Positions 1,969 to 61,427 of a stretch of 61,552 bases of DNA are shown here, in pieces. The position numbers and the translations under genes are program-made. Every line of letters begins with the position of its first letter. Position 1 is the first letter of the stretch. Source of the DNA: a virus; IMG/VR virus record IMGVR_UViG_3300027706_000010, positions 1 to 61,552 of that record, one strand, 5' to 3'. A model generated the notes under the pieces. It saw only the letters and a program-made list of their open reading frames with translations, was not told the DNA's origin and ran no database searches.

Positions 1969-1997
1969 TTGACATTTTGAGACAAGGATAGTATAAT
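1969..1997 (+). promoter_or_regulatory. Consensus sigma-70 promoter for 2034
   Basis: TTGACA at 1969-1974, 17 bp spacer, TATAAT at 1992-1997: a perfect consensus. Followed by AAAGGAGG (about 2018-2025) and the ATG at 2034. Confidence 0.85.
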
Positions 1998-2033: not shown

Positions 2034-2288
2034 ATGTCAGAGGAACAGTATATCTCGTTTGAAGAAGCTGAAGATAAGCTTGGAGTCACCAGGGCGACGC
2101 TTCACTACTATATGCGAGAATTAAAGATTGAGCGTTATAAGTTTCCGCTTGATAAGAGGGCGTATATGAAGCTGTCTGATTTTGAGCGGATACAGGCGGC
2201 GAAAGGTGCGGCAAGTCGAAGAAGTGGGCCGACAAACGGCGATCAAGCAGCAAAGGAGGAGTCGCATGCGAAAACAGCAGCAAGTTGA
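2034..2288 (+). CDS. MerR/excisionase-like HTH protein
   Basis: 84 aa. The N-terminal half (ISFEEAEDKLGVTRATLHYY) is a winged-helix of the MerR/Xis type: helix, turn GVTRATL, recognition helix, then a short wing. The C-terminal 25 residues are low complexity. Strong RBS AAAGGAGG and a perfect promoter suggest it is made constitutively unless repressed. Its end overlaps the start of 2266-3288, so the two are probably translationally coupled. It may control the island behind it or act in excision. Confidence 0.7.
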   Translation: MSEEQYISFEEAEDKLGVTRATLHYYMRELKIERYKFPLDKRAYMKLSDFERIQAAKGAASRRSGPTNGDQAAKEESHAKTAAS

Positions 2289-3288
2289 ATCCATCGAGGA
2301 GATGACCGGTGAGGCACTGATTGCGCAATTGCGGCTGTCGAAAGACCTGCAATTGGCCGCGAGGTTGCTTTCCCGTGAGCAAATTCGATTCCTGGTGGAT
2401 CTCTATTATATCCTCCAGGAGAATCGCATCCGTGCGCAAGCCCAGGTGCGCACGGCAGGGGAGGAGCCAAACCTGCTCATTTCCTGGACATACGATCTCT
2501 ACCGGCAACTTGAGACGGATGTAAGGCAGGCGCTCTTGCACTTTGCTGAGGGGCATATTCCGGGCCAATGGGCGCTTAGCGTTAAGGGGATCGGCCCGGT
2601 GCTTGCGGCGGGCCTCATCGCCCGCATTGACATCACCAAGACCCCAACGGTAGGCGCCCTCTGGCGCCGGGCGGGCTACGATCCGACCTCACACTGGTTG
2701 GGGAAGGGAGATGCGCAGAGGATCATGAAAAAGTACCCCGGTCCCCTCTCTGATGAGGTGTTGGTCGAGATCGCCCGTGAAACCGGGCGCAACGCCTCCC
2801 GGCTGTACCAGGCATGCGTTGATCCTGACACCGGCGAAGTTTCCCGGGCTGCTTTGACCGCGTTGCTGGCGAAACGTCCCTGGGATGCGGCCCTCAAGCG
2901 ATTGTGCTGGCTTGCCGGGCAATCCTTTGTCAAATCGAGTGGCCGGGAAGGATCCTTTTACGGGCCGCTCTACAGGCAGAGGAAATTATACGAAATGCAA
3001 AAAAATGAGGAGGGAGCCTATGCGGATGAGGCCGCGCGGGTGCTCAAAGAGAAGTTCTATGGAAAGGACACAGAAGCGTATAAATGGTATGCGCAGGGGA
3101 AGTTGCCCCCGGCCCACATCCAGGCCCGGGTGGAGAGATGGGTAGTCAAGCTTTTCTTGAGCCACCTTCATGCGGTCATGTATGAGGACTATTTTGGGAA
3201 GCCTGCGCCCAGGCCCTACATCATCGCTATCGGAGGACACCAGGATTATATCGAGATCCCGAACTGGCCCATATTATCCAACAAATAG
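2266..3288 (+). CDS. IS110-like (Transposase_20) helix-hairpin-helix protein
   Basis: 340 aa from the ATG at 2266, chosen because AAAGGAGGA precedes it; the frame is open further upstream. Near residue 110-125 it has VKGIGPVLAAGLIARID, followed by LWRRAGYDP, the helix-hairpin-helix signature of the C-terminal Transposase_20 domain of IS110/IS116 recombinases. The N-terminal DEDD (RuvC-like) domain of true IS110 transposases is not visible, so it is not a complete transposase. Phages carry stand-alone relatives of this domain with unknown function. It is directly followed by the structured noncoding region 3289-3634, which is worth noting because IS110 recombinases work with a noncoding RNA encoded next to them. 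Confidence 0.65.
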   Translation: MRKQQQVESIEEMTGEALIAQLRLSKDLQLAARLLSREQIRFLVDLYYILQENRIRAQAQVRTAGEEPNLLISWTYDLYRQLETDVRQALLHFAEGHIPGQWALSVKGIGPVLAAGLIARIDITKTPTVGALWRRAGYDPTSHWLGKGDAQRIMKKYPGPLSDEVLVEIARETGRNASRLYQACVDPDTGEVSRAALTALLAKRPWDAALKRLCWLAGQSFVKSSGREGSFYGPLYRQRKLYEMQKNEEGAYADEAARVLKEKFYGKDTEAYKWYAQGKLPPAHIQARVERWVVKLFLSHLHAVMYEDYFGKPAPRPYIIAIGGHQDYIEIPNWPILSNK

Positions 3289-3313
3289 ACCTCATAGGTC
3301 TCAAAAACGCGAA

Positions 3314-3563
3314 GTGAACCAATAGCTGCATGAGTACCAAGTTACGTGAGTGAGCCATTGACTGAATGCACGCCTCTCCTGGGGCGCACATTCAGTCAGA
3401 ATGGGCGTGCGAGCCACAGCAGCAATATGTACCATCGAGAGGGGGCGATCCAATCAAGAGAGCGAACCAATGAGTTCGAGCAGCATCCAACGGCAAAGCG
3501 TGAGCCATTTTACTAGTGTGTACCATCTGCTCAGAGCGAACCAGGCTTTAGGCGAGTAACCAA
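3314..3563 (+). repeat. Degenerate 18-bp-period repeat array
   Basis: A short core resembling GNGNRCCAW recurs at 3314, 3332, 3350, 3409, 3427, 3445, 3462, about 3482, 3500, 3518, 3536 and 3554, almost always exactly 18 bp apart; the 3350-3409 gap is about three periods and contains a 10-bp-stem hairpin (3359-3368 with 3389-3398). Between the cores the remaining 9 bp vary. Both strands are interrupted by stop codons, so this is not a coding repeat. It sits immediately upstream of csf1. Nothing I know matches it. Confidence 0.7.
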
Positions 3564-3606
3564 TGGAGCAGAGAATCAGGGGATCCTGATTCTCTGCTCC
3601 ATTGGT
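3559..3606. promoter_or_regulatory. Long perfect hairpin upstream of csf1
   Basis: Arms 3559-3580 and 3585-3606 pair over 22 bp without mismatch around a 4-nt loop (GGAT). No T-run follows, so it is not a classical terminator. It ends 28 bp before the csf1 GTG. In RNA it would be an RNase III-type duplex; in DNA it is a cruciform-capable operator-like site. Confidence 0.8.
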
Positions 3607-3634: not shown

Positions 3635-4513
3635 GTGTCTTTTCCTCTTTCCTGGCTCTATCATCAATATGGCGGCTCCTTCCCGGTGGGAAGTGAGCGC
3701 TGCTACCTCTGTGGAGCATCCTGTGCCGCGACATATACCGTTGCGGCAGGCATTGCCGATACCTTCAATTCTCATTTTCTGGCAGTGTGCCCTCATTCGC
3801 CCTATCTTTGTGCTGCCTGCGCCTGGTACCTCGATGGCAAAGCGGACCATCCCGAATTTCGCAAGATGAGCCTGGTCGTTACCCGGCAAGCGTGGCGCAA
3901 TTGGGAGCGGGCAACTATGAAGCAGGATATTGCACGCTGGCTTGCCGGTGGTTTGCCGGAGGATGCCTACCTTGTGGTATCGCTGAGCAAGAAAAAGCAT
4001 ATCCTTCTGCAAGCGCCACTCAATGTAAGCAGCAGCTCCACGCTTGCGGTGCAGATCGAGGAACAGGTCGCCTATTTGACTGCGAGCGTGTGGGGAGAGA
4101 TGGATGCTGCATTTATGGCTCTGCTCGAATTAGGACACGGGAAAGGCGAAATTTTGAGTGGCGCATTGCATCCATCCGTGCTGCGCAAGCATGGCAGGAT
4201 TGCCGAGGCCCTCGCGCTCTCACGACAATTAGAGCGGTGGCGTGCCTCATCCTCTCTTGAGTTGCTGAGTTATGTTACAATCACGGAAAACAAGGAGGAG
4301 GCACCCCATGATGGACATAGAGGAAGAGGTGATCCCCCCGTATCGGCAGGAACTCGAACGGCATCAGATCGCGGCGGCGTTTCTGCGCGCCGTCTACAAC
4401 GGGATCGAGTGGGACGAGTGGGGGAAATATCGGATGACGATCTGGACGATTCTAGAGACGACGGTAGCCAATGCGGCCCGTATGTCTGCCAGTCTGCTCT
4501 CTTTCCAGAGTAA
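3635..4513 (+). CDS. csf1: Csf1-like large subunit of type IV-B CRISPR complex
   Basis: 292 aa from GTG 3635, supported by GGAGG five bases upstream. N-terminal zinc-binding pairs C23-x2-C26 and C59-x2-C62 fit the zinc finger of Csf1, the Cas8-like subunit of type IV effector complexes. Position as first gene of a csf1-cas11-csf2-csf3-cysH series supports this. Odd: the last about 70 residues (after about residue 224) are out of frame over the next gene, 206 nt of overlap, and look like a shadow reading (GRGDPP, DDDLDDSRDD). The family is usually shorter, so the native stop has probably been lost or an indel has extended the frame. Confidence 0.72.
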   Translation: MSFPLSWLYHQYGGSFPVGSERCYLCGASCAATYTVAAGIADTFNSHFLAVCPHSPYLCAACAWYLDGKADHPEFRKMSLVVTRQAWRNWERATMKQDIARWLAGGLPEDAYLVVSLSKKKHILLQAPLNVSSSSTLAVQIEEQVAYLTASVWGEMDAAFMALLELGHGKGEILSGALHPSVLRKHGRIAEALALSRQLERWRASSSLELLSYVTITENKEEAPHDGHRGRGDPPVSAGTRTASDRGGVSARRLQRDRVGRVGEISDDDLDDSRDDGSQCGPYVCQSALFPE

Positions 4514-4715
4514 GATCGCGCAGATGATGCACGTGGCCGAGATTGGCCGCGATGATGCTGAGCGCCGTTATGTTGCCGATGTGCTCGCGGGCCGCTACGG
4601 CGATCCTGATGCTATTCTTGCGGCGCTGCGGCGTGATCCGCAGGTCTGCGTCATGCTCATGCGCCTCCAGAAAGATGAGGAGAAAGCCTATGCCAACCAG
4701 CAGCTATCGTTTTGA
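4308..4715 (+). CDS. cas11: Cas11-like small subunit (type IV-B)
   Basis: 135 aa, all alpha-helical in appearance, no Cys cluster. ATG 4308 has AAGGAGGAG before it; an ATG immediately after (4311) is equivalent. It starts MMDIEEEVIPPYRQELERHQ and ends in the first codons of csf2. Size, helical composition and position between csf1 and csf2 match the small (Cas11) subunit of type IV-B complexes. The call rests mainly on context, because these subunits are poorly conserved. Confidence 0.6.
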   Translation: MMDIEEEVIPPYRQELERHQIAAAFLRAVYNGIEWDEWGKYRMTIWTILETTVANAARMSASLLSFQSKIAQMMHVAEIGRDDAERRYVADVLAGRYGDPDAILAALRRDPQVCVMLMRLQKDEEKAYANQQLSF

Positions 4716-5643
4716 GGGAATCGCACGCGCGCTCAGCGCTGTGTCGCATGTAGGGGACAGCGCCGGGGGCACAACTGCCATCTTTCGCCGGGAGAAGGTT
4801 CTGGCTGATGGGCGGGTGATCGAGGTCCCGATTCTCAGTGGGAATGCCTTTCGCGGGCAACTCCGGGATACTGGCATGCGTTTTATGCTGCGCGAGCTGG
4901 GCAATCCGCAATTATCCCCGTCGGCCTTCCATTTCTTGACCAGCGGTGGAGCGCTGACAAAGGATGCGGGGCGCGGTCTTGATATCGGCCAGGCGCGGCG
5001 CCTGCGACAGCTTATCCCCCTTGTGGGCGTCTTTGGGGGTGCCTGTGGACGGCAAATCCTCGAAGGGAAACTTCGGGTCGGCAAGTGGTATCCGATCTGC
5101 CGCGAGTTGCGCTCGTTCCTGCCGCCGCACTATCGCGACATGCCCGAGGCTGACGTCAGCATCTACGAGATGACGGACCTGCACAGCTTCACGCGTATCG
5201 ACGATGCCAGATCTGAGCGCTGGCAACAATTCTTGCCGGAGGCGGAGCGCGCGCATTTGGAAGCGCCAAAGGTGAGGCAGGCAAAGGATGGCACCGAGAT
5301 CGCTGAGAAGGCGGGCACGGCGCAGCAGATGCGTTACTCGCAGGAGGTGCTGGTCGCTGGTACGCGCTTCTACTGCTGGCTACAACTTTGCGATGTGACC
5401 GATCTCGAATATGAAGCCTTTGCCTCAGCGCTCGTAGAGTGGAGCCGTGCGCCTTTTGTTGGTGGGCAATCGCGGCATGGCTGCGGCGAGGTGGAGCTGC
5501 GCTTTGATAAGTGGCTCTCGGTCTCGCCGCTCTCGCGTGCGGCTTCTGAGATGGCGGTAGGGCTGCCTGCCGGGCAGGCATACGTTGAGCATCTGCATAA
5601 AGAGCGTGATGCCATTCTGCATGCCCTCAAGGAGATCGTGTGA
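4690..5643 (+). CDS. csf2: Csf2, Cas7-like backbone subunit of type IV-B
   Basis: 317 aa from ATG 4690 (AGGAGA upstream, 26-nt overlap with cas11). It is an RRM-fold RAMP protein: N-terminal strand YRFEGIARALSAVSHVGD, then VPILSGNAFRGQLRDTGMRF, the conserved motif of Csf2/Cas7 proteins, and near the end a glycine-rich FVGGQSRHGCGEVELRF loop. Csf2 polymerises along the guide RNA to form the complex filament. No catalytic acid for target cleavage is evident, as usual for type IV. Its stop overlaps the csf3 start (TGATG). Confidence 0.85.
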   Translation: MPTSSYRFEGIARALSAVSHVGDSAGGTTAIFRREKVLADGRVIEVPILSGNAFRGQLRDTGMRFMLRELGNPQLSPSAFHFLTSGGALTKDAGRGLDIGQARRLRQLIPLVGVFGGACGRQILEGKLRVGKWYPICRELRSFLPPHYRDMPEADVSIYEMTDLHSFTRIDDARSERWQQFLPEAERAHLEAPKVRQAKDGTEIAEKAGTAQQMRYSQEVLVAGTRFYCWLQLCDVTDLEYEAFASALVEWSRAPFVGGQSRHGCGEVELRFDKWLSVSPLSRAASEMAVGLPAGQAYVEHLHKERDAILHALKEIV

Positions 5644-6401
5644 TGCGTCCTCTGCGAGTCGTCGCGCGCCTGGCTGGTTCCATCGCTCTTGCGCGCGCGG
5701 AAGATATCGCGCTTGATGGCCTGCTGGCCTATCAGATGCTGCGGCGCCATTTTGGCGAGGAATTTTATCATCTCCCGGATGCGAAAGAGCATCTGGTCTT
5801 CGCGGATCTTCCGCTGGAACGGCGCGGCGCGCCGTCGGCGCGTATTGCCACGCTCCAGACCGGGGATACCTGGATGCAGCCGGGGCGAGGGATTGTCGAT
5901 GAAAGTTTCTGGTACTGGGCCTGCTCCTCAGCACAGATCGAGGTCCAGGGATACGCAACGCAGTACTGGAACAAACGGTTTGATACTCAGGCCGCGCTCT
6001 CCGATCATATCGACTTTGGCGGCAAAGTCGAGAAGGTTCTGATTGAGCAGGGCCGCTATAAGAGCTACCATATGCCGCTGCCAACGCTCGTTACAGATCG
6101 CGTCGTCTGGTATGCCTATGGCGATCTGGAGAGGGTCAAAGACCTCTTGCAGGATGTAATGAGTCTGGGGAAAAAGCGCAATTACGGTAATGGCATGGTG
6201 ATCGCCTGGAGTATTGATCCGATGGATGAAGACTGGTCTACCTGGCGCGGTGATCGCCTGATGCGGCCCGTTCCCGGACCGCTGCTTGCTGATATAGAGT
6301 GGAATGGACCGTTCAATATGCAGTATATTGCCTATCGCGCGCCGCAGTGGCACCCGGCCAATCAGGCGTTGTGTGTTGTGATAGGAAAACGGTATGCATG
6401 A
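5643..6401 (+). CDS. csf3: Csf3, Cas5-like subunit of type IV-B
   Basis: 252 aa, start at the ATG in the TGATG overlap with csf2. N-terminal MRPLRVVARLAGSIALA is the first RAMP strand. The glycine-rich LGKKRNYGNGMVIAW near residue 175 is the RAMP G-loop that in Cas5 proteins caps the 5' end of the guide RNA. Length and order (after csf2, before cysH) match Csf3. Overlap with cysH is 8 nt, so the operon is tightly coupled. Confidence 0.82.
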   Translation: MRPLRVVARLAGSIALARAEDIALDGLLAYQMLRRHFGEEFYHLPDAKEHLVFADLPLERRGAPSARIATLQTGDTWMQPGRGIVDESFWYWACSSAQIEVQGYATQYWNKRFDTQAALSDHIDFGGKVEKVLIEQGRYKSYHMPLPTLVTDRVVWYAYGDLERVKDLLQDVMSLGKKRNYGNGMVIAWSIDPMDEDWSTWRGDRLMRPVPGPLLADIEWNGPFNMQYIAYRAPQWHPANQALCVVIGKRYA

Positions 6402-7182
6402 GGCAGAACGACTCTCGCACCAGTTGCATGCTCGTTTGCCCACATTTGCCCGTAAAGTGGAGCAGGCGCAAACGAGTATTGAGGAGGCACTGGGCTGCAT
6501 GCATGCGCCCTATGTCGCTTTTAGCGGCGGGATTGATAGCACGGTCCTGCTCGATCTGCTCTTTCAGGCAGGATATCATCTCCCTGTGCTGTGGGGAGAT
6601 GACGGCTACGACTATCCTGAATCTCTGACATTTCTTCGAGAGAGCGAGCAGCGGTATGGCTTTCACCTTCAGCGTATTCGCTGCATGCAGCCCTGGCGCG
6701 ATTGGTGCCTGGAGATGGCCCGACCAGATCTTGCCGAGGATCCTGCGGCGCGTGCCTCCTGGGGGAATCCTCCTCTGTGGGATGCTACGTGGAACTCGCT
6801 CAAAGATGCCTCTTTGCATGCATATGACGGTGTATTTCTGGGCTTGCTCGCTTGTGAGAGTCGAGGGCGCAGATATGCGCTCAAAGGCGGTAGACGCGTA
6901 GTCTATCAGGTACAAGGCGAGGGGGGCATGTGGCATTGCAGTCCGCTCGCGCAGTGGAGCAAACGTGACATCTGGGCATATGCCATAGCACGCAATCTTC
7001 CTTATAATCCCGTCTATGATCGCCTGGCTGCCTACGGTATCCCCTGCGAGCAGCGCCGTGTTGCCCCGCTCACCTGCTTTCGCGTCGTGCAGTACGGGAG
7101 TCATGTATGGCTCAAATCTGGCTGGCCCGATCTCTACAATTCTCTTGCTGGTACGTTCCCCCGTGTGCGCTCCTCCGTCTAG
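6394..7182 (+). CDS. cysH: CysH-like PP-loop ATPase of type IV-B locus
   Basis: 262 aa. The PP-loop SGGIDS is at residues 44-49 (YVAFSGGIDSTVLLDLL), typical of PAPS reductase/ATP pyrophosphatase proteins. Further motifs: LWGDDGYDYPES (substrate loop), LLACESRGRR, and CSPLAQWSKRDIWAYAIARN, which matches the W-T/S-x-D-I/V motif of the CysH family. A cysH gene beside csf genes is the hallmark that separates type IV-B from other type IV subtypes; its job in those systems is not established. It is the last gene of the operon. Confidence 0.85.
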   Translation: MHEAERLSHQLHARLPTFARKVEQAQTSIEEALGCMHAPYVAFSGGIDSTVLLDLLFQAGYHLPVLWGDDGYDYPESLTFLRESEQRYGFHLQRIRCMQPWRDWCLEMARPDLAEDPAARASWGNPPLWDATWNSLKDASLHAYDGVFLGLLACESRGRRYALKGGRRVVYQVQGEGGMWHCSPLAQWSKRDIWAYAIARNLPYNPVYDRLAAYGIPCEQRRVAPLTCFRVVQYGSHVWLKSGWPDLYNSLAGTFPRVRSSV

Positions 7183-8557: not shown

Positions 8558-8723
8558 CTTTTGTTGCTTTCTGCCACGTTGTTCTACTTGTTTGTATTCT
8601 CTGATATTTTCATATAGTACTATGAAGTTGTGAAGAGTCTAGGTAAATTGATGAGACTATGATATACTGTACAGGCATCCACACGGATGCCTATTTCTTT
8701 TGTCTCTGGATGGTTGTTTTCGT

Positions 8724-10175
8724 ATGCGAACGTTTAAGTATCGGCTCTATCCGACAAGGCGACAACAGGATGCCCTGCGATGGATTCTTGCCCGGTGTTG
8801 CGAATTATATAATGCTGCGCTCCAGGAGCGTCGTGATGCCTATGAGATGTGTGTCAGGCGGCATCCTGGCTATTATGATAAAGAGACGCGCCGAAAACAG
8901 ACGAGAGCGTATGCAATTACCAAATATGCTCAATCCAGAGAACTGACTGAAATTAAACATGAGATTCGCCCGGAGTATCAAGAAATTGGCGATCATGTTC
9001 TGCGCAATGTTTTGCAGCGTATTGATCTTGCATTTCAAGCGTTCTTTCGACGGGTGGCAGAGCGAGAGAAACACGGGGGTACAGGCAAAGTTGGGTATCC
9101 TCGTTTCAAAAGCTCCAGGCGGTATGATTCCTTTGCCACGGATAGCGCCTGTAAAATCCGCGATGGCCGTCTTGAGGTCAAGGGTGTGGGATGGGTTAAA
9201 GTCAAGCTCCATCGCCCGCTGTCAGGTGAGATTAAAACCTGGACGGTCAAACGGGAAGGGGAGCACTGGTATGTCTGTATCGTGTGCGATCAGGCGGCGC
9301 AAGAGACACCGCTCCCCTTCAATGGTGAGGCGGTTGGTATTGATCTTGGACTCCTGCATTTTGCCACGCTTTCGACCGGGGAAACGATTGAGAATCCGCG
9401 TTACTTTCGGCAGGCTGAGAAGAAGCTGGCCTTGCACCAGCAGGCGCTTGCGCGTAAGAAACGCAAAGATAAACGAACCGGATGTAAAGGGCATCGGCGG
9501 GAACGCGCGGTGAAACTGGTTGTCGCAGCGCATCGCAAGATCCGGAATCAGCGCCGCGATTTCCAGCACAAGGCATCGCGCCAGCTAGTGAATCGGTATG
9601 GCGCAATCGTATTCGAGGAGCTACAGCCTGCGAATCTCAGCAGGCGCCCAAAGGCGAAACAGGCTGAGGATGGGCATTACTTGCCCAATGGGGCCTCGGC
9701 AAAATCAGGACTCAATAAATCTATCTTAGATGCTGGTTGGGGCACGTTTGTACAGATGTGTGCGTACAAGGCGGAAGGGGCTGGTCGTGCGCTTGTGCAA
9801 GTCGATCCCAGAAATACCAGTCAGATCTGCTCAGGATGTGGAGAAATAGCCCATAAGAAGGATCTCAGCGAGCGCTGGCACGCATGTGCATGCGGGTGCT
9901 CGCTGGACCGCGACCATAATGCGGCGATCAACATTGTGCGGCGTGGGTTGGCATCTCTGAACCATGCAGATCTGAATTATCCAGCATTCCGCGAGGCAGA
10001 AAGCGGTGCTTTTCTCAAGCAGGATGCCTCGCAGCACACCGATGGGGGCGGGCCGCCCCTGCGCACCCGCAAGGGTGCGTGCACCCGCGAGGGTGCGTGC
10101 GCCCGCAAGGGCGCACTCAAGTCCTCTTCTTCTTCTCATGCTGCCTCGCAATTGGCGCTGTGGCCTGGCCTGTAA
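8724..10175 (+). CDS. TnpB/Cas12-like RuvC nuclease adjoining CRISPR array (type V-U candidate)
   Basis: 483 aa from ATG 8724 (MRTFKYRLYPTRRQQ, the usual TnpB start; eight more in-frame codons lie upstream). RuvC motifs are intact: D207 in VGIDLGLLHFATLS, E298 in IVFEELQPANL, and D395/D397 in DRDHNAAINI. The zinc ribbon CSGCG...CACGC lies between motifs II and III. So it should be an active RNA-guided nuclease. Unlike the two IS-borne tnpB genes in this window it has no transposase partner and no IS end; instead a CRISPR array starts 21 bp after its stop. The last 70 or so residues (RKGACTREGACARKGA, SSSSS) are low complexity because the DNA there encodes four RNA-like hairpins. Alternatives: solitary IS1341-type tnpB that landed beside an array. 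Confidence 0.85.
   Translation: MRTFKYRLYPTRRQQDALRWILARCCELYNAALQERRDAYEMCVRRHPGYYDKETRRKQTRAYAITKYAQSRELTEIKHEIRPEYQEIGDHVLRNVLQRIDLAFQAFFRRVAEREKHGGTGKVGYPRFKSSRRYDSFATDSACKIRDGRLEVKGVGWVKVKLHRPLSGEIKTWTVKREGEHWYVCIVCDQAAQETPLPFNGEAVGIDLGLLHFATLSTGETIENPRYFRQAEKKLALHQQALARKKRKDKRTGCKGHRRERAVKLVVAAHRKIRNQRRDFQHKASRQLVNRYGAIVFEELQPANLSRRPKAKQAEDGHYLPNGASAKSGLNKSILDAGWGTFVQMCAYKAEGAGRALVQVDPRNTSQICSGCGEIAHKKDLSERWHACACGCSLDRDHNAAINIVRRGLASLNHADLNYPAFREAESGAFLKQDASQHTDGGGPPLRTRKGACTREGACARKGALKSSSSSHAASQLALWPGL
10045..10116 (+). ncRNA. Tandem GNRA-capped hairpins (omegaRNA/tracr-like candidate)
   Basis: Four consecutive hairpins: 10045-10059 (6 bp, GC-only stem), 10062-10079 (7 bp, loop GCAA), 10081-10096 (6 bp, loop GCGA) and 10097-10116 (8 bp, loop GCAA). 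Three carry GNRA tetraloops. They overlap the 3' end of the tnpB-like gene, where TnpB guide RNAs (omegaRNA) are encoded, and end 80 bp before the first CRISPR repeat. RNA function is inferred from structure only. Confidence 0.6.
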
Positions 10176-10196: not shown

Positions 10197-10750
10197 CTTG
10201 CAAGGCATGATAAGGAAGATGGGGATAGGCCACTCGACAAAACTTAGGCAGCTAAAAGTACCGGTAATACCTTGCAAGGCATGATAAGGAAGATGGGGAT
10301 AGGCCACAGGAAGATTTTCAAAGATCCCGAACGGATGCCGCAGACCTTGCAAGGCATGATAAGGAAGATGGGGATAGGCCACACAGATTAAGAGCGGTGT
10401 CACACTGCCACTTCTTAACTTGCAAGGCATGATAAGGAAGATGGGGATAGGCCACGATTTAGACCATTGCGTTGACGAAGATGGGAACATCTTGCAAGGC
10501 ATGATAAGGAAGATGGGGATAGGCCACGCTCCGGTGGTATTCGCGCCCTGCACGGATATGCCGAACTTGCAAGGCATGATAAGGAAGATGGGGATAGGCC
10601 ACCCGTTCAATCCCCGTACCGGCGCTGGCGCTAGAGGACCTTGCAAGGCATGATAAGGAAGATGGGGATAGGCCACCCGTTCAATCCCCGTACCGGCGCT
10701 GGCGCTAGAGGACCTTGCAAGGCATGATAAGGAAGATGGGGATAGGCTAC
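10197..10750 (+). CRISPR. CRISPR array, 8 repeats of 37 nt, 7 spacers
   Basis: Repeats begin CTTGCAAGGCATGATAAG and end GGGGATAGGCCAC, at 10197, 10271, 10346, 10419, 10491, 10566, 10640 and 10714. Seven copies are identical; the last has GGCTAC for GGCCAC, which marks the right side as the leader-distal end and suggests + strand transcription from the tnpB side. Spacers are 37, 38, 36, 35, 38, 37 and 37 nt. Spacers 6 (10603-10639) and 7 (10677-10713) are identical, a repeat-spacer duplication. No cas1/cas2 and no cas6 lie nearby. Effector candidates are the TnpB-like protein just upstream and the type IV-B complex. Confidence 0.96.
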
Positions 10751-39968: not shown

Positions 39969-41174
39969 TCATCCAGCCACCTTGCCCGCTCTGGCCTTGC
40001 CAGAACGAGTAGCGGGTGTCTGTCCAGAAGCGTTTCGCCTCTTCTGAGAGAGGCCCGTTTCCGATTGCCCACCGGTACGGTCTAATGCCTTTGCGAGAAT
40101 GTTGAGAGCGGCATTGTGATCTCGATCAAGCACCAATCCACATCCAGAACAGATGTGTGTCCTGACAGAGAGGCTCTTCTTGACTCGTGTGCCACACGCT
40201 GAGCAATCCTGCGACGTCCAGGCCGGTTCAACGGCTATCACAGGGATGGTATGCACTTGCCCATAATAGGTGAGCCACGAGAGAAAGCGCCCCCAGGCCG
40301 CATCACTGATGCTCTTCGAGAGGTGTCGGTTTCTGACGAGGTTGGCTATCTTCAAGTCTTCGTAGGCAATGAAATCGCTAGATGTCACGAGCGTGCTTGC
40401 CGTTTTACGGGCAAAGTCTTCACGCTGCCTACTGACTTTCAGATACGCCTTTGCCAGTGCTTTCCTGGCTTTCTTCCTATTCTGAGATTGCTTTTGCTTG
40501 CGAGAAAGTCGTCTGTGCAGCTTCTTCAAGCGTTTTTCGGCTTTGCGCAGATGACGAGGGTTAGCTACAGTATTGCCTTCTGAGTCCGTTAAGAACGCCT
40601 TCAAGCCCATATCGATGCCAACCTGTTTGCCGGTAGGGATATGCTCAATCTGTCTCTCTGCATCAACAGCAAACTGAGCATAGTAGCCATCGGCCCGCTT
40701 GACAATCCGTACCCGCTTGATTTGCTTCGTGGGGAACTCTTCAATGCGTTGGTTCTTGTTGCCTACAAGCCGCAAGCGTCCAATGTTGCAACCATCGGTG
40801 AAGGTGATATGCTTGCCATCCGGCTCCAACTTCCAGCCCGTTTGTTTATACTCGACACTCCTGTTATCATGCTGGAAGCGGGGATAGCCCTTCTTGCCGG
40901 GCTTGTGGGTCTTGCAATTGGCATAGAAGCGTGAGATAGCCGCCCACGCTCGTTCAGCAGCCGCTTGCCGCGCTTGAGAATTGAGTTTTGAGGCAAAAAG
41001 AAACTCTTTTGCAAGCTGAGAGCAAGCTGCGTTAAGATCATAGCCATTCGTGCCACGAGTGTCCATCCACAAGCGAAGTGCCTTGTTACGGATGAACTGC
41101 ACAATGCGTATCGCCTCATCAATGGCGGCATATTGTTCTTTGGTGCCACGCAGCTTGTACTCAAAAATCAGCAT
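39969..41174 (-). CDS. tnpB: TnpB RNA-guided nuclease of IS605 element
   Basis: 401 aa. Intact RuvC motifs: VGIDMGLKAFLTDSEG (Asp), DFIAYEDLKIANL (Glu), LDRDHNAALNI (Asp), with zinc ribbon CSACG...CSGCG. Start overlaps the tnpA stop. It nicks or cuts the empty donor site guided by omegaRNA from the element's right end, favouring IS retention. Confidence 0.92.
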   Translation of the reverse strand: MLIFEYKLRGTKEQYAAIDEAIRIVQFIRNKALRLWMDTRGTNGYDLNAACSQLAKEFLFASKLNSQARQAAAERAWAAISRFYANCKTHKPGKKGYPRFQHDNRSVEYKQTGWKLEPDGKHITFTDGCNIGRLRLVGNKNQRIEEFPTKQIKRVRIVKRADGYYAQFAVDAERQIEHIPTGKQVGIDMGLKAFLTDSEGNTVANPRHLRKAEKRLKKLHRRLSRKQKQSQNRKKARKALAKAYLKVSRQREDFARKTASTLVTSSDFIAYEDLKIANLVRNRHLSKSISDAAWGRFLSWLTYYGQVHTIPVIAVEPAWTSQDCSACGTRVKKSLSVRTHICSGCGLVLDRDHNAALNILAKALDRTGGQSETGLSQKRRNASGQTPATRSGKARAGKVAG

Positions 41175-41569
41175 CAGGTTCGACTCTGCCTCTCAATGTA
41201 TTTCTGTATCGTGTCCTGACTGACAAAGCCAGCCGTGCTATAGAAGGTGCTTCGTGTCCACAGCGAGGGCATCCGCTTGAGATGAGGAAATTCTTCCCGC
41301 ATGTGATGCGAGGAACGGCCCTTTATCAAGCGGGGAATGTCCGTAGGCAGCGTGTAGGGATTGGCCTGAATGAACAGATGCACGTGATCTGGCTGAATTG
41401 CCAGTTCGACAATTTTCCACCCGTTTTCTTCTGCCACTTCACGGACGATCTGCTCGAAACGGTCACGTACTGGCCCTACCAGTATCTTGCGCCTTCGTTT
41501 CGGGCAAAAGATGATATGGTAGAGAATGTGATGAACCGTATGTTGTTCGTGAATATACTCGTCACTCAT
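41174..41569 (-). CDS. tnpA: IS200/IS605 Y1 transposase
   Basis: 131 aa from ATG 41569 (MSDEYIHEQHTVHHILYHII). HUH motif in IQPDHVHLFIQ and catalytic Tyr in QDTIQKYIERQ near the C-terminus. It excises and inserts single-stranded IS DNA at the hairpin ends. Confidence 0.93.
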   Translation of the reverse strand: MSDEYIHEQHTVHHILYHIIFCPKRRRKILVGPVRDRFEQIVREVAEENGWKIVELAIQPDHVHLFIQANPYTLPTDIPRLIKGRSSHHMREEFPHLKRMPSLWTRSTFYSTAGFVSQDTIQKYIERQSRT

Positions 41570-41767
41570 GTATACAAGTATAGCGCAAACAACATACCTT
41601 GTCAACATTCCCCACCCTATCCCCAACTAAGGAACGGCGCTCTCATCCCCCGCTTGAAAGACGGGGGTTTTCCCGCGCCGGTTGTATAACCCCAGGCACC
41701 ACCCCCGTCAGATATGGCTCAGAATGCAAAATTGAAAGCCCCAATGCAGGTACAGGCGCAATAAAAG

Positions 41768-41818: not shown

Positions 41819-42511
41819 TCATTTCTCTTCATATTCAGCAAGCACCGCAACACGCTCATCCATCCACCGTGAAATTTTTTCAATGATCTCATCCCCCGCC
41901 ATTGCCGCCGACCACTCCGCCGCCCACGCCGACTCCGCCGACCACGCCGACCACGCCGACCACTCCGCCGACCTTGCCGCCCTTGCCGTCGACCACTCCC
42001 CCGCCATTGCCGTCGACCACTCCGCCGCCCACGCCGACTCCGCCGCCATTGCCGCCGACTCCGCCGCCATTGCCGCCGACCTTGCCGACTCCGCGTTTTC
42101 TTCTGTTGGGGCAGCAAGCCATCGTCTTGCAGCATCTATCGCGGCACGCGGGCGCTTGTCATCTGGATACATCTTTTCAAAGTTTTCTAGCACAAGTTCA
42201 GCGGCAAAGATAGACAATGCAACACTATCGTGTTTTTGCCAGCGCCAGACACGCACCAGGCGCATCTTTTGCCAGGCTTCTTTGTCATCATTGACAATAG
42301 AAGCTCCACTCACTTCGACTTGTGCAAGGATTTCCCCTTGCACATAGGTAAACGCCTGGTAGCACGTCCGCGAACAATGGAAGCCATTTTCACAGATGAT
42401 AAGCTCGTTGTCACGAACGGATTGCCATTCGCCGATGTGCCAGATGCAATCGCCTGATTCTGACCTGATTTCGTTATCAATCAGGCACAAAAATTTATAC
42501 CGCCGCTGCAT
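41819..42511 (-). CDS. Phage protein with Ala/Trp/Ser tandem repeats (DUF7666-like)
   Basis: 230 aa. N-terminal domain (ICENGFHCSRTCYQAFTYVQ, GEILAQVEVSGASIVNDDKE) resembles the phage DUF7666 pattern. Residues about 135-205 are tandem five-to-eight-residue repeats such as SAAMAAESAWAAEWS, encoded by GCC/GGC-rich repeats in which alternative frames also stay open. Repeat number is likely variable. Function unknown. Confidence 0.7.
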   Translation of the reverse strand: MQRRYKFLCLIDNEIRSESGDCIWHIGEWQSVRDNELIICENGFHCSRTCYQAFTYVQGEILAQVEVSGASIVNDDKEAWQKMRLVRVWRWQKHDSVALSIFAAELVLENFEKMYPDDKRPRAAIDAARRWLAAPTEENAESARSAAMAAESAAMAAESAWAAEWSTAMAGEWSTARAARSAEWSAWSAWSAESAWAAEWSAAMAGDEIIEKISRWMDERVAVLAEYEEK

Positions 42512-59952: not shown

Positions 59953-59982
59953 GAGAACGTTTCTAAGAAATGATGTCACCTG

Positions 59983-60011
59983 TTGACATGTGCGTACAAA
60001 CATGCTACAAT
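59983..60011 (+). promoter_or_regulatory. Promoter of IS607 tnpA
   Basis: TTGACA (59983-59988), 17 bp, TACAAT (60006-60011), a few bases before ATG 60018, so the message is nearly leaderless. Confidence 0.7.
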
Positions 60012-60017
60012 CCTTCC

Positions 60018-60593
60018 ATGAAGTTAAGTCAGTACGCCAAACAACAAGGCATCAGCTATCGAACAGCTTTACGCTGGTTTCGGGCGGGTACCATCAAAGG
60101 CTATCAGGCTCCCACTGGCACCATCATCGTGACAGAGGGAGAAAAACCGCCTGTTCATCTTGAGAAGGTTGCCATTTATGCTCGCGTCTCATCTGCTGAA
60201 CACAAAGCCAACTTAGAGAGACAAGCAGAACGGTTGCTACAGTATTGTGAGGCGCGCGGCTATCAGGTGGTACAAGTGGTGAAAGAGATTGCATCGGGCG
60301 TCAATGATAGCCGCCCGAAACTCATTGGACTCTTGAAGGATACGAGCATCACCCTGATTGTGGTAGAGCATCGAGACCGTCTGACTCGTTTCGGGTTTCA
60401 CTATCTGGAAACGCTCTTAGAAGTTCAGGGACGCAAGATCGAAGTGGTGAATGTGGCTGAGGATGACAAAGAGGACTTGATTGCTGATCTGGTAGCCATT
60501 GTTTACTCATTCACCGCCCGATTGTATGGGCAACGACGTGCTAAGCGGAAGACAGAAGCCTTAGTTGAGCAGTTACAAAGTGAGGACAAGTAG
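60018..60593 (+). CDS. tnpA: IS607-family serine recombinase
   Basis: 191 aa. N-terminal MerR-like HTH (MKLSQYAKQQGISYRTALRW) and serine recombinase domain with the catalytic Ser in IYARVSSAEHKANLERQ, and HRDRLTRFGFHYLE with the conserved Arg residues. The HTH-first order is the IS607 hallmark. Stop is directly followed by the tnpB ATG. Confidence 0.93.
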   Translation: MKLSQYAKQQGISYRTALRWFRAGTIKGYQAPTGTIIVTEGEKPPVHLEKVAIYARVSSAEHKANLERQAERLLQYCEARGYQVVQVVKEIASGVNDSRPKLIGLLKDTSITLIVVEHRDRLTRFGFHYLETLLEVQGRKIEVVNVAEDDKEDLIADLVAIVYSFTARLYGQRRAKRKTEALVEQLQSEDK

Positions 60594-61427
60594 ATGCAAC
60601 TGGTAGAGCAGCATGTGATTCGTAAAAATGACCCACGCTATGAGGCCATAGATCGTGCTGCTTTCGCGTCCAAGAATCTCTACAATGCTGCAAACTACCT
60701 TGTCCGACAAGCCTTCATCTTTCAGGGCACCTACCTGGGTTATGCTGAAATCTTCCATCTGCTGAAGGGGCATGACGCCTATCAAGCCTTACCACGTAAG
60801 GTGAGCAACGATGTCCTGAGGCTCTTAGATAAGAACTGGAAAAGCTTCTTCAAAGCAATCAAAGCGTGGAAAGCCCATCCTGAGCAGTTTTTAGGGCGGC
60901 CCAAACTGCCTGGTTACAAGGATAAAATCGAGGGGCGAAACATTCTTATCTATGATATTCAAGCACTCAGTAAGACGGCATTGCGAAAGGGGATAATTGC
61001 GCCGTCGCAACTTGGTATCACTGTTCAGACACAGCAGACGAACGTTAAGCAAGTCCGTATCATTCCTAAATCTACTCATTACGTGATTGAAGTGGTCTAT
61101 GAGCAAGAGCCTGAACAGGCAAGCGTGGATGCTTCACTCGTGGCCGGTATTGATTTGGGATTAGACAATCTGGCAACGCTTACCAGTAACAAGCCTGGTT
61201 TTGCGCCACGTCTGATAAGCGGCAAGCTCCTGAAGAGTATCAATCAGGGCTATAACAAGCGACGTGCAGAGCTTCAAAGCCAACTCAAGAACCGTTTTAC
61301 ATCCCGCCAACTTGAGCGGCTTACCGACAAGCGCAATCGACGTATCAAGCACCTTCTCCATAGTGCGTCCAAACAGATTGTTGCTTTGTTGGTAGCGGAA
61401 GGCATTGGCACCCTGGTCATCCTATAG
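60594..61427 (+). pseudogene. tnpB: tnpB, C-terminally truncated
   Basis: 277 aa. Has the N-terminal domain and RuvC-I (AGIDLGLDNLATLTSN), but ends EGIGTLVIL at the place where other TnpBs continue GTLVIGKN... with the zinc ribbon and the last RuvC Asp. It is followed immediately by the right-end hairpin, so about 100 or more codons have been deleted. Expected to lack nuclease activity, though RNA binding may remain. Confidence 0.8.

What the first reader, a model, noticed from the sequence alone, without database searches (positions are those of the whole stretch)
3314..3606. Noncoding 18-bp-period array plus 22-bp hairpin directly upstream of the csf operon
Seen: about 12 copies of a GNGNRCCAW-like core spaced 18 bp apart, with variable 9-bp intervals, interrupted by a 10-bp-stem hairpin and ending in a perfect 22-bp hairpin. 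It is not coding. It matches no CRISPR, iteron or terminator type I know. Because type IV-B has no known guide source, a structured repeat tract at its 5' side could be a guide/precursor RNA, a regulator-binding array or a relic of a mini-array.
Basis: partly seen in the sequence, partly recalled or inferred. Interest (0 to 1): 0.82.

Follow-up and report, generated by a model that had tools for sequence, protein, structure and literature searches.

The report
Phage TIGR guide-RNA array with TasA
The repeated tract is the guide-RNA array of a recently described RNA-guided DNA-binding system (TIGR-Tas) carried by this phage. It belongs to the gene just upstream, not to the CRISPR type IV-B genes downstream, so it is a new example of a known kind in an unusual neighbourhood.

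Summary
The 3312-3606 tract is a short, divergent dual-repeat TIGR array of a TIGR-Tas system (Faure et al. 2025, PMC12045711). Its protein is TasA, the ORF ending 24 nt upstream (2266-3288).

Evidence:
- A DNA-only pattern from the array fetched viral loci, of which 38 encode homologues of that ORF (38-51% identity in the 36 aligned) beside the same array.
- Conversely, 71 of 80 loci found by the protein carry a same-strand array scoring at least as high as the window's.
- A repeat model built only from relatives picks this tract as the best in the whole window: 39.2 against 19.3 elsewhere, 0 of 1000 shuffles.
- The protein passes NCBIfam's TIGR-Tas cut-off (165 bits against 100), and its AlphaFold model's top 10 PDB matches are all TasR or TasH.
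- It lacks a nuclease domain, so it is TasA.

No other csf locus examined has Tas. Unusual features are a perfect 22-bp terminal hairpin, an internal 16-bp hairpin seen in none of 98 relatives, and the abutting type IV-B operon. Biological function, and whether this degenerate array is still used, remain open.

The parts
1969..1997 (+). Sigma-70-type promoter match, 12 of 12 (TTGACA-17-TATAAT); candidate promoter for HTH-tas-TIGR (and possibly csf)
   Evidence: consensus match only
2034..2288 (+). Small MerR/excisionase-like HTH gene; overlaps the start of tas by 23 nt
   Evidence: (phrog_66 E=2e-7)
2266..3288 (+). tasA: Nop-domain TIGR-associated protein, 340 aa, ATG start with GGAGG upstream, no nuclease domain
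   Evidence: NCBIfam NF052498 165 bits (cut-off 100); PDB 9mty TasR E=1e-12; AlphaFold/Foldseek; homologues beside arrays
3312..3357 (+). TIGR unit 1: edge AAGTGAACCA, spacer A ATAGCTGC, loop ATGAGTACCA, spacer B AGTTACGT, edge GAGTGAGCCA
3359..3398 (+). Internal hairpin (16-nt arms, 88% paired, 8-nt loop) splitting the array
   Evidence: none inside arrays of 98 relatives
3407..3452 (+). TIGR unit 2: edge GTGCGAGCCA, spacer A CAGCAGCA, loop ATATGTACCA, spacer B TCGAGAGG, edge GGGCGATCCA
3460..3489 (+). Degenerate stretch: edge-like GAGCGAACCA (3460) and poor GCAGCATCCA (3480)
   Evidence: scores 16.4 and -10.4
3498..3543 (+). TIGR unit 3: edge GCGTGAGCCA, spacer A TTTTACTA, loop GTGTGTACCA, spacer B TCTGCTCA, edge GAGCGAACCA
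3553..3606 (+). Last loop-like repeat CGAGTAACCA, running into a perfect 22-bp palindrome (3559-3580/3585-3606) at the array end; no U-tract follows
3635..7182 (+). Neighbouring type IV-B operon (csf1, cas11, csf2, csf3, CysH-like); adjacent, not part of the TIGR system
   Evidence: PADLOC and NCBIfam

Best explanation
The tract is a short dual-repeat TIGR array of a phage-encoded TIGR-TasA system. Shown here: alternating 10-nt edge and loop repeats ending in box C (CCA), 8-nt spacers, a 36-nt double unit, and a Nop-domain Tas gene 24 nt upstream on the same strand. Inferred from the characterised systems: the array is transcribed (probably with tas, from the 12/12 promoter at 1969), processed in the edge repeats into 36-nt tigRNAs, and bound by a TasA dimer. 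Spacer A and spacer B then pair with opposite strands of an adjoining DNA target. With no nuclease domain, TasA would bind and bend the target rather than cut it, silencing or disturbing a competing element or a host or phage locus. The terminal hairpin sits where TIGR arrays usually carry a terminator. The csf operon is a separate neighbouring module.
For: Array to protein: a pattern made from the array DNA alone fetched viral loci, 38 of which encode homologues of the upstream ORF besides the window's own (phmmer E 1e-82 to 7e-30) beside arrays. Protein to array: of 80 loci found by Tas protein, 71 have a same-strand array scoring at least 39; the reverse-strand control never exceeds 16.8; the array often starts about 15 nt after tas. 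A repeat model from relatives finds this tract as the best in the window. NCBIfam TIGR_Tas_endo 165 bits against a cut-off of 100. PDB sequence hits TasR 9mty E=1e-12 and TasH E=5e-5. AlphaFold pLDDT 90; the top 10 Foldseek PDB matches are all TasR/TasH, then IS110. Published array anatomy matches.
Against: The array is short (12 repeats; median of relatives 25) and more divergent than 88 of 98 related loci. It is broken by an internal hairpin, and the Tas protein sits on a long branch (1.51), so it may be decaying. The terminal hairpin has no U-tract. There are no transcript data. No target was found for the three clear spacer pairs in the loci held.
Confidence: 0.94

Rival explanations
1. 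The array is the missing guide source or a regulatory leader of the type IV-B Csf complex.
For: It lies between tas and csf1 on the same strand, ending 28 nt before the csf1 start; no promoter was predicted in between; the type IV-B complex assembles on heterogeneous RNA of regular length (PMC7937560).
Against: The closest csf relatives (69-72% identity) have no such array upstream of csf1. No Tas in any other csf locus examined, and no array in the viral, phage and plasmid ones. No csf2 in any Tas locus at E<0.01. The same arrays are widespread without csf.
Confidence: 0.03
2. It is a decayed TIGR relic: same origin, but the array is no longer a working guide source.
For: Few repeats, two poor repeats, low mean repeat score (10 of 98 loci lower), internal hairpin absent from relatives, long protein branch.
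Against: tasA is an intact ORF with a good ribosome-binding site; the invariant residues of the 37-row alignment are by definition kept; three edge-loop-edge units are clear; some relatives have similarly variable arrays (L097).
Confidence: 0.25
3. A DNA-level regulator-binding or iteron array (origin, operator or partition site) with a cruciform palindrome.
For: Regular spacing and a perfect palindrome close to a gene start.
Against: The repeats match TIGR edge and loop repeats in about 100 loci beside a Tas gene, with two alternating repeat classes and freely varying spacers.
Confidence: 0.02

Closest known systems
TIGR-TasA dual-repeat systems (Faure et al. 2025, PMC12045711)
   Same: Alternating 8-12-nt edge and loop repeats ending in CCA, 8-9-nt spacers, 36-nt unit, Nop-domain protein without nuclease beside the array, phage-borne, hairpin at the array end.
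   Different: Only about three clear units, more variable repeats, an internal hairpin, terminal hairpin without U-tract, type IV-B operon directly downstream.
TIGR stem-loop arrays (same paper)
   Same: Hairpins occur within a TIGR locus.
   Different: Here edge and loop repeats are present, and the hairpins do not enclose the box C/D-spacer units.
IS110 bridge-RNA transposases
   Same: Related Nop-like fold; next-best Foldseek hits after TasR/TasH and weak Pfam Transposase_20.
   Different: No DEDD/RuvC domain, no bridge RNA or element ends recognised; NCBIfam IS110 far below its cut-off (25.7 against 140).
Type IV-B CRISPR (csf)
   Same: Adjacent in this phage; also nuclease-free and carried by mobile elements.
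   Different: The array does not recur at other csf loci.

Membership tests
TIGR-Tas (dual-repeat) | Tas protein with Nop domain | tested here: met
   NCBIfam NF052498 165 bits, cut-off 100; 9mty E=1e-12; Foldseek TasR/TasH
TIGR-Tas (dual-repeat) | Alternating edge and loop repeats of 8-12 nt with box C (CCA) | tested here: met
   degenerate at 3460-3489
TIGR-Tas (dual-repeat) | Spacers of about 9 nt (8-12), unit about 36 nt | tested here: met
   8-nt spacers by this repeat boundary, lag 36
TIGR-Tas (dual-repeat) | Array adjacent to the tas gene | tested here: met
   24 nt downstream, same strand; 71 of 80 relatives likewise within 3 kb
TIGR-Tas (dual-repeat) | Usually 5-15 units, ending with a truncated edge repeat and rho-independent terminator | tested here: inconclusive
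   About 3 clear units; 22-bp terminal hairpin but no U-tract
TIGR-Tas (dual-repeat) | Processing into 36-nt tigRNAs and tandem-spacer DNA targeting | not testable with these tools
   Needs RNA sequencing and biochemistry
TasA subtype | No RuvC or HNH domain | tested here: met
   Nop/IS110-C-like match only; the model is nearly all helical with no RuvC- or HNH-like domain
Part of the type IV-B system | Array recurs upstream of csf1 in related loci | tested here: not met
CRISPR array | Identical 25-40-nt repeats with similar-sized spacers | tested here: not met
   10-nt alternating repeats, 8-nt spacers

The most novel reading that the evidence does not exclude
TIGR-TasA and type IV-B form one co-transcribed module in this phage, in which tigRNA processing frees the csf message or tigRNAs also load or regulate the Csf complex: two nuclease-free RNA-guided systems working together.
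Probability: 0.05. Interest if true: 0.85.

Novelty: new member of a known kind. Interest (0 to 1): 0.4.

Why it matters
It moves the tract from 'mystery next to IV-B' to a named system, which stops it being counted as a IV-B guide source. It gives a natural case where two nuclease-free, RNA-guided systems of unknown biology sit head to tail in one phage. That arrangement fits, but does not prove, the published suggestion that TasA acts against other mobile elements without cutting, as type IV does.

Tried and rejected
Rfam and tRNA searches were empty. Single-sequence scans with the Tas protein in genome and viral contigs found nothing, probably because the peptide patterns were too specific; the array pattern solved this. 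Many hits of that pattern are coding repeats in long ORFs and were set aside by ORF length and absence of Tas. The exact hairpin arm occurs nowhere else in viral contigs. Target search: no exact two-strand target for the three clear spacer pairs in the loci held, and nothing better than 3 mismatches in 16 in the window; 16 bases is too short for a meaningful whole-collection scan, so none was made. No Tas homologue in the phage or plasmid collections at E<=1e-5.

Full report
The observation. The window is a 61,552-base virus record. Between 3312 and 3606 there are twelve CCA-ended cores. Neighbouring cores are 17-20 bp apart, mostly 18, apart from a 59-bp step across a hairpin. Autocorrelation is highest at 36 bp (0 of 1000 dinucleotide shuffles as high) and next at 18 bp (4 of 1000). 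A 16-nt-arm hairpin (88% paired) interrupts the tract and a perfect 22-bp palindrome closes it.

From the array to a protein. I scanned viral contigs with a pattern made only from three consecutive cores. The hits fell into two groups: coding repeats inside long ORFs, and long arrays alternating GAGCGAGCCA and GAGAGNACCA with free 8-nt spacers. Of these loci, 38 encode a homologue of the ORF directly upstream of the window's array, at E 1e-82 to 7e-30. The 36 aligned are 38-51% identical to it.

From the protein to the array. A scan with the protein alignment gave 80 loci. In 71 of them an array of the same type lies within 3 kb on the same strand with a score at least that of the window (39). 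The reverse-strand control never exceeded 16.8. The array often starts 15 nt after the tas stop codon; in the window the gap is 24 nt. A repeat model trained only on the relatives, run over the entire window, picks 3312-3357 as the best place: 39.2, against 19.3 for the rest of both strands, and 0 of 1000 shuffles of the region reach it.

What the protein is. The ORF (ATG 2266, stop 3288, 340 aa) matches the NCBIfam equivalog for TIGR-Tas at 165 bits against a cut-off of 100, and IS110 only far below its cut-off. In the PDB by sequence it hits TasR (9mty, 1e-12) and TasH (5e-5). Its AlphaFold model (pLDDT 90) has TasR and TasH structures as its ten best Foldseek matches, with IS110 recombinases next. 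It has no RuvC or HNH domain, so it is a TasA.

How it most likely works. Published work on TIGR-Tas (PMC12045711) describes edge and loop repeats with box C and D, spacers of about 9 nt, processing to 36-nt tigRNAs, and a Tas dimer whose two spacers pair with opposite DNA strands. The main sequence features of this scheme are present here; box D is less clear than box C. Expression, processing and targeting are inferred. A perfect sigma-70-type promoter match lies at 1969-1997, upstream of a small HTH gene that overlaps tas. Three edge-loop-edge units are clear (3312-3357, 3407-3452, 3498-3543); the stretch between the second and third is degenerate. The biological role of TasA is unknown in the literature; binding without cutting is the simplest expectation.

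What is unusual. The array is short and its repeats are more variable than those of 88 of 98 related loci. The protein is on a long branch. The internal hairpin has no counterpart inside 72 kb of related arrays from 98 loci. Terminal hairpins occur in a minority of relatives. These points leave open that the array is decaying.

The csf operon. csf1, cas11, csf2, csf3 and a CysH-like gene follow from 3635. The two closest csf relatives have no array before csf1. None of the other csf loci examined (viral contigs, phage SPI1, seven plasmid loci, eight genome loci) carries a Tas gene in the flanks held, and the viral, phage and plasmid loci were also scanned for the array without success. The plasmid collection has 69 records with csf2 and no Tas. 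No Tas locus carries csf2 at E<0.01. The adjacency was therefore seen only in this phage, and the guide-source hypothesis for IV-B is not supported.

Verdict. This is a new, divergent member of the TIGR-TasA kind in a notable neighbourhood. It is not a new class of array.

Noticed in passing
10197-10750: A CRISPR-like array: eight copies of a 36-nt repeat (CTTGCAAGGCATGATAAGGAAGATGGGGATAGGCCA), about 37-38-nt spacers, the last repeat altered and the last two spacers identical. It lies about 3 kb downstream of the type IV-B operon, whose relatives mostly lack a nearby array, so it is a better candidate guide source for csf than the TIGR tract.
   Followed up: partly
8700-10175: TnpB/Cas12u4-like (C2c8-related) protein directly beside the CRISPR-like array; could be a type V-U effector.
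   Followed up: partly
39969-41626 and 59970-61427: Two further TnpB-like genes by sequence, one beside an IS200-like TnpA and one beside an IS607-like serine recombinase (by eye).
   Followed up: no
L076: hairpins at 107-143 and 1445-1479 (orientation of tas): Nearly identical 15-16-bp hairpins flank the whole tas-TIGR cassette on both sides, perhaps cassette boundaries.
   Followed up: no
1906-1997: Divergent near-perfect sigma-70 promoter matches (11 and 12 of 12) between the reverse gene 1481-1870 and the HTH-tas genes.
   Followed up: no
41883-42094: Low-complexity repeats with 9-30-bp periods inside an ORF, probably coding.
   Followed up: no
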